Shown piece after piece: positions 20,791-29,398 of a DNA stretch of 51,497 bases. This stretch comes from a bacterium. GTDB taxonomy: Bacteria > Blakebacterota > Blakebacteria > Blakebacterales > Blakebacteraceae. The notes under the pieces were generated by a model. The model was given only the letters and a program-made list of their open reading frames with translations, was not told the origin of the DNA and searched no databases. The stretch is from NCBI GenBank assembly GCA_025774615.1, contig JALGVQ010000004.1, positions 1 through 51,497 of the forward strand, in the 5' to 3' direction. The position numbers and the translations under genes were made by a program. The first letter of the stretch is position 1; every line of letters starts with the position of its first letter.

Positions 20791-20970
20791 GATGGAACAC
20801 AGTACATGCCTGCGGGGTATGCCTGCCACCGGAGTGTCATGCGACGGTTGTTGCGTGACAGGGCACCAGTATGCATGCAACGCTTGTGGCCGGAGAGCTA
20901 TGGAGGTAGACTCCTTTCCCGTCCGGAAACGGCCCTTTTCCGCCGGCCATCTACCCGGAGTACCGGCTGA
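20791..20970. promoter_or_regulatory. Divergent glnE/glnB intergenic region
   Basis: 180 bp that must hold the start signals for both divergent genes. It contains the 31-nt repeat copy (20840-20870). A possible weak promoter toward glnB is TTGTTG (20849-20854), 16 nt, then TATGCA (20871-20876); it overlaps the repeat. An inverted repeat of CGGAAA and TTTCCG lies near 20930-20950. No sigma54 -24/-12 match (TGGC...TTGC) was seen. Promoter positions remain uncertain. Confidence 0.35.
20840..20870 (+). repeat. 31-nt copy of the repeat right end, upstream of glnB
   Basis: These 31 bases match 21554-21584 at 30 positions, the only difference being T/C within TTGTTGCG versus TTGTCGCG. It includes GCGTGACAGGGCACCAG. 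The GTGTCATG just upstream (20835-20842) resembles the left end of the larger element, so this may be a decayed or internally deleted copy. It has the same orientation as the downstream copy, so glnB lies between direct repeats about 0.7 kb apart. Confidence 0.8.
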
Positions 20971-21309
<339 letters not shown>

Positions 21310-21665
21310 GTACGTCCTCCCGCAGTCTGAAAACAGTGTACTGGCCCGTATCTATCCTCAATCAGTCGAAGATTCCTCTTAACGAGAACACCCCGGTTGT
21401 GTTAATTTCGCACGGGCATGGGTGTCATGTCAGGTGACAAACGTCAGCACCGAGAGTGATGCCGGGCCCGGCCTGCAAGGCGCGGCGACGAGGCATAGCG
21501 GTGGCTATGGCGAGAAGACGAAACGCAGCCGGTCGGGATGCGGCACCGCTCGAATGCGACGGTTGTCGCGTGACAGGGCACCAGCTGTTGACGGGTATGG
21601 CCGACCGTGGATTCCCGAACCCCTCTCACGCTACGTTCATTTCCGACGTAGACAGACCGAAACGG
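21310..21665 (+). other. 356-bp gene-free region between glnB and purN
   Basis: No protein or known RNA gene is supported. The first 110 bases (21310-21420) show no clear promoter or terminator. Bases 21421-21582 are an inverted-repeat-bounded element. Bases 21631-21651 form a perfect 6-bp hairpin (CTACGT / ACGTAG, 9-nt loop) ending 14 nt before the purN ATG. An ORF from 21456 reads in frame into purN but lacks purN-family similarity before 21666. The purN-purH promoter was not located. Confidence 0.6.
21421..21582 (+). repeat. 162-bp inverted-repeat element (MITE/REP-like)
   Basis: The 25-base ends (21421-21445 and 21558-21582) are inverted repeats matching at 20 of 25 positions. Each arm is itself near-palindromic: TGTCAGGTGACA on the left and TGTCGCGTGACA on the right. 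Internal structure includes the perfect palindrome GCCGGGCCCGGC (21461-21472) and a perfect hairpin CATAGC-GGTG-GCTATG (21494-21509). It encodes no transposase. The flanks CATG and AGCT show no target-site duplication. Related sequence occurs at 20840-20870 and 29373-29398, so this is a repeat family and not a single hairpin. It could be a non-autonomous mobile element or a structured RNA. Confidence 0.7.
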
Positions 21666-22310
21666 ATGGAAATGGCTCTTAATCTCGCTGTTCTCGCCTC
21701 TGGTGGAGGGACGAACTTTCAGGCGATACTTGATGCCATCAGCGGAGGAACACTCGACGCGGAAGTCGTACTGGTCGCGAGTAACAGAGAGAACGCGCGT
21801 GCCCTCGAACGGGGAGGGAACGCCGGTGTCAGGGCAGAGCACATCCTGCCGGGAGACGATTACGACGATAGACTGCACGATCTCCTCGAAGAAGCGGCGC
21901 CCGACCTGATCGTGCTGGCCGGCTATATGAAGCTGATCGCGGCGCGCACCGTCCGGCGGTGGAATGGCAGGATGCTGAACATCCACCCGGCACTCCTGCC
22001 CGCATTCGGGGGGAAGGGGATGTACGGGATGCATGTGCATGAAGCTGTGCTGGAGAGCGGTACACGGGTGACCGGTGTGACGGTCCATATCGTCGACGAG
22101 GAATACGATCGGGGGCCGATCATCGCCCAGCTCGCCGTCCCGGTCCTTGATGGCGACACCCCGGAGATGATTCAGCAGAGAGTGCTGAAGAGGGAATATG
22201 ATATCTACCCGAGGGTCATCCAGTGGTTCTCGGAAGGCAGGATCCGCATCGAGGAGGGTCGGGTATTCGGCAGCGAGCCGGACCCGCTCCTGATACAGGA
22301 ACGGAGCTGA
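21666..22310 (+). CDS. purN: Phosphoribosylglycinamide formyltransferase
   Basis: 214 residues from ATG 21666 (ATG 21672 is equally possible), close to E. coli PurN (212). It transfers a formyl group from 10-formyl-THF to GAR in purine synthesis. Visible: LAVLASGGGTNFQAILDAI, LVASNRENARAL, VLAGYMKLI, and the catalytic block NIHPALLPAFGGKGMYG with the His after Asn. TGVTVHIVDEEYDRGPII supplies the Asp. The frame remains open upstream into the repeat element to 21456, but that part resembles no PurN. It is followed eight bases later by purH, the later formyl-transfer step of the same pathway. Confidence 0.96.
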   Translation: MEMALNLAVLASGGGTNFQAILDAISGGTLDAEVVLVASNRENARALERGGNAGVRAEHILPGDDYDDRLHDLLEEAAPDLIVLAGYMKLIAARTVRRWNGRMLNIHPALLPAFGGKGMYGMHVHEAVLESGTRVTGVTVHIVDEEYDRGPIIAQLAVPVLDGDTPEMIQQRVLKREYDIYPRVIQWFSEGRIRIEEGRVFGSEPDPLLIQERS

Positions 22311-28129: not shown

Positions 28130-29373
28130 CGGGCCGGCGGGGCGGATCGCTCATGCTCCAGCGTGATTTCGATCACATCCTCTTCCTCAGCGTGATGGGA
28201 CTCGTGCTGATCGGCATCGCCTTCGTCTATTCAGCGACCGTGGAGAACACGCAGGTGGCTGCGCCCCTGCATACACGACAGGCGCTCTGGGCCCTGGCAG
28301 GAGTGATCGCGATCGTGGTCTCGATCAGACTCCCCATACAGTTCTATTTCGGAGCGTCGTACATTCTCTTCATCGCAGTCATACTCGTCCTCATGGCACT
28401 GCTCGTAGTCGGGGGGGGGGAGGGGGGGCGGTGGTTCGCGTTATCGAGCGGTGTGCGCATCCAGCCGAGCATCCAGCCGAGCGAGCCGGCTAAGATCGTG
28501 CTGGTGCTCGCGGTCGCGCGGTACCTCTCAGGCAGGCTCGTGAATTTCAAACGGGCCCGCGATTTTCTGATACCGCTGGGGTTGGCATTCATTCCGTTCG
28601 TACTCGTGATGCGTCAGCCCGACCTCGGGACCGGCATGATATTCCCGATGATAATCATTCCCATGCTCTACTGGAAGGGCCTGCCGATCTGGATCATCTT
28701 CCTGCTCTGTACGCCGATATTGAGCGTGGTCACCGCCTTCTCTCCGGAAACGTGGGGAGTGGCCATGTTCATCATCGGCCTGGTGGTGTGGCGGAAAAAA
28801 GTCAAACCGGGGCTGGCCATACTGGTGATCCTCGTCAATATCGTGCTCGGTATCCTGACGCCGGTTGTATGGGACAACCTCCATGAATACCAGCAGAACA
28901 GGATATCGACCTTCGTCAATCCCCAGAACGATCCTCTCGGTGCGGGGTACCAGATCATCCAGTCGACGGTGGCCGTGGGCTCCGGCGGTCTGACGGGGAA
29001 GGGATATCTGCAGGGGACGCAGACAAAACTGAATTTCCTGCCCGAACAGCATACCGACTTCATCTACAGCGTGATCGCGGAGGAGACGGGTATGCTGGGC
29101 GCCCTCATAGTCCTGCTCCTGTTCGCGGTGGTTCTCCAGCGGACGCTCAAGGCCGCGACTGAAGTCAGGAACACCTTCGCGGGGCTTGTTATCGCCGGGG
29201 CTTCCGGGATCTTGTTCGCGCATATCGTGATCAATATCGGCATGTCCCTCGGATTGTTGCCCATTACCGGGTTGCCGCTTCCCTTCATCAGTTACGGAGG
29301 TTCACACCTTCTCAGCATGATGCTCCTGGTCGGCATCGTGCTTGGTCTGCGCCTGCGCTGGATGGAATACTAG
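28126..29373 (+). CDS. rodA: Peptidoglycan glycosyltransferase RodA (SEDS family)
   Basis: 415 residues with about ten membrane helices. It polymerises lipid II with PBP2. SEDS hallmarks are present: QPSEPAKIVLVLAVARYL, RQPDLGTGMIFPMIIIPML, QQNRISTFVNPQNDPLGAGY, QSTVAVGSGGLTGKGYLQGT, FLPEQHTDFIYSVIAEETG and LPLPFISYGGSHLLSMM. The extracytoplasmic loop near residue 98 (VVGGGEGGRWFAL) is encoded by ten G, one A and seven G (28411-28428). The frame is intact as given. The stop codon lies within the palindromic repeat before lgt. Confidence 0.97.
   Translation: MTGRRGGSLMLQRDFDHILFLSVMGLVLIGIAFVYSATVENTQVAAPLHTRQALWALAGVIAIVVSIRLPIQFYFGASYILFIAVILVLMALLVVGGGEGGRWFALSSGVRIQPSIQPSEPAKIVLVLAVARYLSGRLVNFKRARDFLIPLGLAFIPFVLVMRQPDLGTGMIFPMIIIPMLYWKGLPIWIIFLLCTPILSVVTAFSPETWGVAMFIIGLVVWRKKVKPGLAILVILVNIVLGILTPVVWDNLHEYQQNRISTFVNPQNDPLGAGYQIIQSTVAVGSGGLTGKGYLQGTQTKLNFLPEQHTDFIYSVIAEETGMLGALIVLLLFAVVLQRTLKAATEVRNTFAGLVIAGASGILFAHIVINIGMSLGLLPITGLPLPFISYGGSHLLSMMLLVGIVLGLRLRWMEY
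28411..28428 (+). repeat. Homopolymeric G tract within rodA
   Basis: Ten consecutive G (28411-28420), one A, then seven G (28422-28428) code for the GGGEGG loop of RodA. A one-base slip would shift the frame in an essential elongation gene. It could be a phase-variable tract or a spot prone to sequencing error. The present length keeps the frame. Confidence 0.9.
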
Positions 29374-29398
29374 GTGCGCTGCCACGTGACAGGACACT
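29373..29398 (+). repeat. Solo palindromic repeat between rodA and lgt
   Basis: An imperfect palindrome centred on CACGTG (29383-29388), with GGTG at the left and CACT at the right; outer bases add CTAG at each side. Its right half, CACGTGACAGGACACTAG, matches the right end of the glnB-purN element at 15 of 18 positions. It includes the last base of the rodA stop and ends two bases before the lgt ATG, so it fills the whole gap. It might fold in the mRNA and shape lgt translation. Confidence 0.65.

What the first reader, a model, noticed from the sequence alone, without database searches (positions are those of the whole stretch)
21421..21582. 162-bp inverted-repeat element with nested palindromes between glnB and purN
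The ends match as inverted repeats at 20 of 25 positions, and each arm contains its own palindrome (TGTCA..TGACA). Inside are a perfect 12-bp palindrome and a perfect 6-bp hairpin. It has no coding capacity of its own and shares sequence with two other intergenic sites in this window. It looks like a non-autonomous mobile or REP-type repeat, or a structured RNA. I do not recognise it as a named family.
Basis: partly seen in the sequence, partly recalled or inferred. Interest (0 to 1): 0.66.

Follow-up and report, generated by a model that had tools for sequence, protein, structure and literature searches.

The report
Mobile hairpin element with shared core
The 160-base palindromic sequence between glnB and purN is one of about ten full and dozens of shortened copies of a non-coding mobile element in this genome, and its inner hairpin, kept by matched mutations, also sits inside other mini-transposons with unrelated ends in distant bacteria, so the hairpin itself probably does something.

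Summary
The element proper is 160 bp (21422-21581). The genome holds 10 long copies (84-95% identity) and about 34 hits to parts, mostly the ends; the next genome in the genus has a similar set. The same site is empty in that congener and in two family members, so this is a non-autonomous mobile element (MITE). Ends GTGTC.../...GGGCAC, TA-like target duplications and a preference for CTAG (often at TAG stop codons) fit an IS630/Tc1-mariner-type transposase, which was not found. The REP/RAYT reading is not supported: no Y1 transposase in these genomes or in Solimonas aquatica, which carries eight near-identical copies of a relative.

The surprise is inside. An 84-nt central hairpin with conserved GA/GA internal loops recurs in 58 of 369 Gammaproteobacteria and 13 of 382 other bacteria sampled. 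It lies inside MITEs with unrelated ends, including an IS1380-type MITE beside a matching IS in Polaromonas. Covariation is very strong (25 of 26 pairs), and G.T outnumbers A.C mismatches 61:16, so one strand is selected to fold. No Rfam family matches. Coxiella QMITE2 may be related; I could not compare it. The role of the core is inferred, not shown.

The parts
21422..21581 (+). full-length element (160 bp), in the orientation of the conserved core
   Evidence: alignment with other copies; empty sites in G001, G002, G003
21422..21439 (+). left terminal inverted repeat GTGTCATGTCAGGTGACA with its own palindrome
21564..21581 (-). right terminal inverted repeat (GTGCCCTGTCACGCGACA on the - strand)
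21461..21544 (+). conserved structured core: covarying stem, AAGGCGC/AACGC collar, GA/GA internal loops, apical hairpin
   Evidence: model R1 match, 92.9 bits; covariation
21494..21509 (+). apical hairpin CATAGCGGTGGCTATG
   Evidence: conserved in A1 and A2
20834..20866 (+). 33-bp deletion derivative with both ends
29374..29397 (-). 24-bp minimal derivative; the TAG at 29371-29373 just before it is the stop codon of the rodA-family gene
20971..21309 (+). glnB (P-II protein), upstream neighbour
   Evidence: Pfam PF00543, 1.4e-33
21672..22310 (+). purN (formyltransferase), downstream neighbour
   Evidence: Pfam PF00551, 2.5e-48

Best explanation
This is a MITE: a non-coding DNA element with short ends (GTGTC...GGGCAC) moved in trans by a cut-and-paste DDE transposase, most likely of the IS630/Tc1-mariner kind. 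It inserts at TA-like sites, by preference inside CTAG and often at a TAG stop codon, which its own border rebuilds so that the upstream gene is not broken. Between the ends lies a structured core (stem, AAGGCGC/AACGC collar, GA/GA internal loops, apical hairpin) selected to fold on one strand. The core is a passenger module also carried by MITEs with unrelated ends. I think it acts as folded RNA in read-through transcripts, or as strand-specific single-stranded DNA, and helps these elements persist or be tolerated. Internal deletion yields 64-, 33- and 24-bp derivatives that keep the ends and lose the core. Shown: dispersed copies, insertion polymorphism, ends, core structure, its recurrence in other MITEs. 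Inferred: transposase family, passenger status, any function of the core.
For: Copies in own genome and relatives. Empty site in G001, G002 and G003 for the window copy and further occupied/empty pairs. TA-like duplications; CTAG flanks of eight Solimonas copies; TAG stops at borders. Covariation in 25 of 26 pairs, score 0.70 against 0.19 in shuffles. GA/GA loops kept while the flanking pairs switch. G.T 61 against A.C 16 on an alignment not fitted to the model. Same core in MITEs with IS1380-type ends, one beside a matching IS.
Against: No transposase with matching ends found for this end type, not even in Solimonas. Target duplications have drifted, and the window site itself gives no clean one. 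No expression data, and no orientation bias to neighbour genes (18 to 13). Alignment A2 is fitted to the model, so its counts lean towards it.
Confidence: 0.6

Rival explanations
1. REP/BIME-type repeat mobilised by a RAYT (Y1 HUH transposase).
For: Short palindromes in each arm; single-ended mini forms resemble REPs; Y1 genes exist in some other carriers of the core.
Against: No Y1 gene in G000-G003 or in Solimonas with eight near-identical copies; no GTAG tag; TA-like duplications and intact paired ends.
Confidence: 0.06
2. An ordinary MITE family whose core is only ancestral baggage: one old MITE lineage changed its ends over time, and the core is kept by the long hairpin, not by any function of its own.
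For: Ends evolve fast with arms changing together, for example TCGTGAGTC against TCCTGTCTC within Solimonas; many MITEs form long hairpins (PMC2229807).
Against: The most conserved columns are unpaired ones (GC/AA, GA/GA loops), which hairpin maintenance alone would not keep; IS1380-type ends with 5-bp duplications imply a different transposase.
Confidence: 0.25
3. A structured non-coding RNA gene or cis-regulator of purN.
For: Strong covariation and single-strand selection.
Against: The insertion is absent at the same site in three relatives; copies lie beside many different genes with no fixed orientation; no sigma-70-like promoter or intrinsic terminator seen.
Confidence: 0.05
4. A relative of QMITE2, described in Coxiella and some Alphaproteobacteria.
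For: Same general picture: palindromic stem conserved between bacterial classes, divergent tip, full and small forms (PMC5896051).
Against: QMITE2 has 7-9 bp direct repeats, and its small forms lack TIRs, whereas here the small forms keep the ends and lose the core.
Confidence: 0.2

Closest known systems
RUP of Streptococcus pneumoniae (IS630-Spn1-type MITE; PMC2229807)
   Same: Non-coding, about 100-160 bp, intergenic, TA at the ends, thought to be moved by an IS630-family transposase
   Different: RUP has a known partner IS and no conserved core shared with other MITEs; here the partner is missing and the core is cross-family
Correia/NEMIS of Neisseria (PMC2229807)
   Same: TA-flanked hairpin MITE with a full and an internally deleted form; transcripts fold
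   Different: Different sequence; NEMIS RNA is processed by RNase III, which is untested here
QMITE2 of Coxiella burnetii (PMC5896051)
   Same: Conserved palindromic stem shared between bacterial classes; full and small forms
   Different: 7-9 bp direct repeats; small forms lack TIRs; sequence not compared
IS1380-family IS (DDE_Tnp_1_4) in Polaromonas sp. P1-6, CP087967
   Same: Shares its 16-bp TIR and AT-rich flanks with a neighbouring MITE that holds the same core
   Different: Its ends are unrelated to those of the window element
GTAG/CGTC-tagged REPs (PMC3733652)
   Same: Short palindromes, often at gene 3' ends, in several phyla
   Different: 20-40 bp, single-ended tag, RAYT-linked for GTAG; no TA duplication

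Membership tests
MITE (general) | short non-coding element with terminal inverted repeats in many dispersed copies | tested here: met
MITE (general) | insertion polymorphism (occupied and empty orthologous sites) | tested here: met
IS630/Tc1-mariner-derived MITE | TA target duplication | tested here: inconclusive
   TA-like in the best pairs but drifted; Solimonas C-TA...TA-G in nearly all copies; window site unclear
IS630/Tc1-mariner-derived MITE | autonomous IS with matching ends in the same or a related genome | tested here: not met
   no DDE_3 in G000-G003; no paired ends in Solimonas
REP/RAYT | Y1 HUH transposase in the genome, flanked by the repeats | tested here: not met
Rfam RNA family | match at or above a curated gathering score | tested here: not met
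   nothing up to E = 1 for the element
QMITE2 | sequence similarity to CbsR16 | not tested
   no sequence in the main text of PMC5896051; Coxiella DNA not fetched
QMITE2 | 7-9 bp direct repeats at the insertion site | tested here: not met
   flanks are CTAG/TA-like

The most novel reading that the evidence does not exclude
A strand-specific folded module with repeated GA/GA internal loops is an independent passenger of mini-transposons: it has been picked up by, or kept in, MITEs of several transposase families across distant bacteria, and helps them spread or be tolerated whatever the transposase.
Probability: 0.4. Interest if true: 0.8.

Novelty: new variant of a known kind. Interest (0 to 1): 0.62.

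Why it matters
MITEs are usually seen as dead IS remnants defined by their ends. A structured core conserved across bacteria and across unrelated end types would mean these parasites carry a shared functional part, possibly an RNA, that can be tested directly. A covariance model of it would also annotate a large and, as far as I could find, unnamed set of intergenic repeats (58 of 369 Gammaproteobacteria sampled). The deletion series down to 24 bp shows how REP-like palindromes can arise from full MITEs.

Tried and rejected
RAYT/REP origin: Pfam PF01797 absent in G000-G003 and Solimonas. IS630 partner in the family: PF13358 absent; the Solimonas DDE_3 gene lies beside a different apparent end. 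Full IS by paired ends: the inward-facing pair about 1.2 kb apart that I checked in G001 flanks exbB/exbD-like genes, not a transposase; none in Solimonas. Viral contigs: no match to the core or end patterns. E. coli: none with one relative as query. Plasmids: only Burkholderia stagnalis and Polaromonas. Rfam: none. Sigma-70 promoter or intrinsic terminator in the element: none by consensus scan. Fixed orientation to neighbour genes: not seen. A 2024 NAR paper on conserved MITEs, cited in a paper I read, is not held.

Full report
WHAT IS THERE. The inverted ends match at 20 of 25 positions, a figure none of about 21,900 sampled positions in shuffled windows reached at the same spacing, and the named palindromes and hairpin exist. 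Alignment with other copies moves the boundaries by one base to 21422-21581, 160 bp. The + strand folds at -91.2 kcal/mol (z -5.9); the - strand at -70.9 (z -3.0).

IT IS A REPEAT FAMILY AND IT MOVES. The window's genome (82% complete, 324 contigs) holds 10 long copies at 84-95% identity and about 34 partial hits, mostly ends. G001 (same genus) has a comparable set; G002 and G003 (same family) share fewer. At the glnB-purN site G001 reads TTAATTTCGCACAGCGCCTGCTGTTGACGGG straight through, and G002 and G003 are empty too, so the window copy is an insertion. G001 instead has an inverted copy abutting glnB, where the border CTTTAG supplies the glnB stop codon. Further occupied/empty pairs between G000 and G001 involve 160-, 70-, 51- and about 45-bp forms.

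ENDS AND TARGET. Two empty-site pairs are best read as TA-like 2-bp duplications with drift: C-TG-[51 bp]-CA-A against C-TA-A, and C-TA-[70 bp]-TT-G against C-TG-A. Solimonas aquatica carries eight near-identical 166-bp relatives flanked by CTAG on both sides, with one end drifted to CTGG. Twenty-eight open frames of at least 100 codons end in a TAG 30-45 nt outside the core, nearly all reading cTAGtg at the element border (not all of these need be genes). One is the rodA-family gene whose stop is at 29371-29373 in this window, next to the 24-bp copy (seen directly, not part of the count). TA in CTAG is the reported preference of IS630 (Tenzen and Ohtsubo 1991, cited in PMC2170065). No transposase with matching ends was found, so the IS630 assignment is inference.

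DELETION SERIES. Copies fall in discrete classes: 160 bp (8 and 8 in the sequence held of G000 and G001), 64 bp, 33/38 bp and 24 bp (4 and 6). The 24-bp form, GTGTCATGTCACGTGACAGGGCAC, is what remains after deletion between the TGTCACGTGACA palindromes of the two ends. Recurrent slippage and separate mobility of the mini forms are not told apart.

THE CORE. G003 shares only the central part with the window element, and its ends differ. A pattern for the centre found it in Solimonas and Thiocapsa. A covariance model (R1) then hit, at E <= 0.001 per genome, 17 of 386 sampled bacterial genomes, 13 of them outside this family, and 58 of 369 Gammaproteobacteria, often in several copies; the weakest of these hits may be chance. 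On 66 aligned copies, 92% of cells pair, 25 of 26 pairs show changes on both sides, and the covariation score is 0.70 against 0.19 for shuffles and 0.11 or less for slid structures. That alignment is fitted to the model. Between the pairs lie conserved mismatches: left GC 63/66 opposite right AA 64/66, then GA (55/66) opposite GA (55/66), then GA opposite GA, which in about ten sequences becomes GC opposite AA together. The single pairs between the loops switch among C-G, G-C and T-A. This is the behaviour of a folded nucleic acid with tandem G.A pairs, not of a simple inverted repeat.

WHICH STRAND. In 16 full copies of G000 and G001, aligned without the model and using pairs from both strands' folds, G.T mismatches outnumber A.C by 61 to 16 (inner part 37 to 6, outer 24 to 10). 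In the superfamily it is 117 to 24 (this one leans to the model). The strand that reads AAGGCGC...GCAACGC is therefore the one kept foldable. RNA, or single-stranded DNA of one polarity, fits; a purely double-stranded inverted repeat does not. Orientation to neighbouring genes is close to even (18 to 13, by a simple longest-ORF rule), so a fixed role in the host transcript is unlikely.

THE SAME CORE IN OTHER MITES. In several Gammaproteobacteria the core lies in elements of about 235-285 bp with ends like CCTGGAATYCGCAGTTGA...TCAACTGCGGAATCCAGG, one with an exact 5-bp duplication ATTAT (L155). In Polaromonas sp. P1-6 such an element (TIR CCTAGAAACGGCAGTT, L264 7345-7578) lies beside an IS with an IS1380-type transposase (DDE_Tnp_1_4, 1.5e-24), the same TIR and a TTAAA flank on both sides. 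Other copies have yet other ends, for example TTAGGACTCGGGCGG (L150), TATACCCGTAGCG (L158) and GGGGGTGTTAACAATTACC (L159). A Burkholderia stagnalis element holds two hairpins between CTAGTGGCCTG ends. The centre is thus more conserved than the ends, the reverse of an ordinary MITE family.

INTERPRETATION. The safest statement is a MITE, probably of IS630 type, with a conserved structured core. The core being a functional passenger is my inference. It rests on the conservation of unpaired loops, the strand asymmetry, and recurrence in MITEs with unrelated ends. Against it stand the lack of any expression data and the possibility that part of this is already known as QMITE2 of Coxiella, which also shows a conserved stem across bacterial classes (PMC5896051) but has 7-9 bp direct repeats; I could not compare the sequences.

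LIMITS. The MAGs are incomplete, so absence of a transposase there is weak; Solimonas is better but was tested only for Y1, DDE_3 and paired ends. The genomes were drawn from the class of Solimonas, which in GTDB, by my knowledge, includes betaproteobacterial orders. The literature searched is only open-licence text.

Noticed in passing
window 29374-29397 and L254: At the rodA-lgt junction the window has the 24-bp mini copy, while G001 has a different element of about 163 bp that also carries the core (GCAAGGCGCAGCGACGAA...GAGGAGTTGCAACGC) at the same place: the same gene end was hit by two element types, or one replaced the other.
   Followed up: partly
window 21396-21413: TGTTAATTTCGCAC in the glnB-purN gap is kept in all four genomes while the rest of the gap diverges; it may be a promoter or operator of purN, and the element lies just downstream of it.
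   Followed up: no
L079 2287-3474: In G001 two ends of this family face inward around exbB/exbD-like genes, about 1.2 kb apart; chance, or a composite cassette.
   Followed up: no
L107 1399-1414: The Solimonas IS630-family (DDE_3) gene lies just after CTAG at the TAG stop of an aldehyde-dehydrogenase-like gene: the same kind of target as the MITEs.
   Followed up: no
L083 5319-7076: A group II intron lies between two of the Solimonas copies.
   Followed up: no
L154 1394-1584, L147 1396-1586, L122 1395-1585, L165 1379-1584: Two core-like hairpins side by side in opposite orientation, a bipartite form also seen in Burkholderia stagnalis (L262).
   Followed up: partly
L117, L120, L134 around 1501-1587: In other genomes core hairpins sit in larger repeats with GGAGGCTCAGATTT/GAGCCTCC ends and a further adjoining hairpin-like tract.
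   Followed up: no
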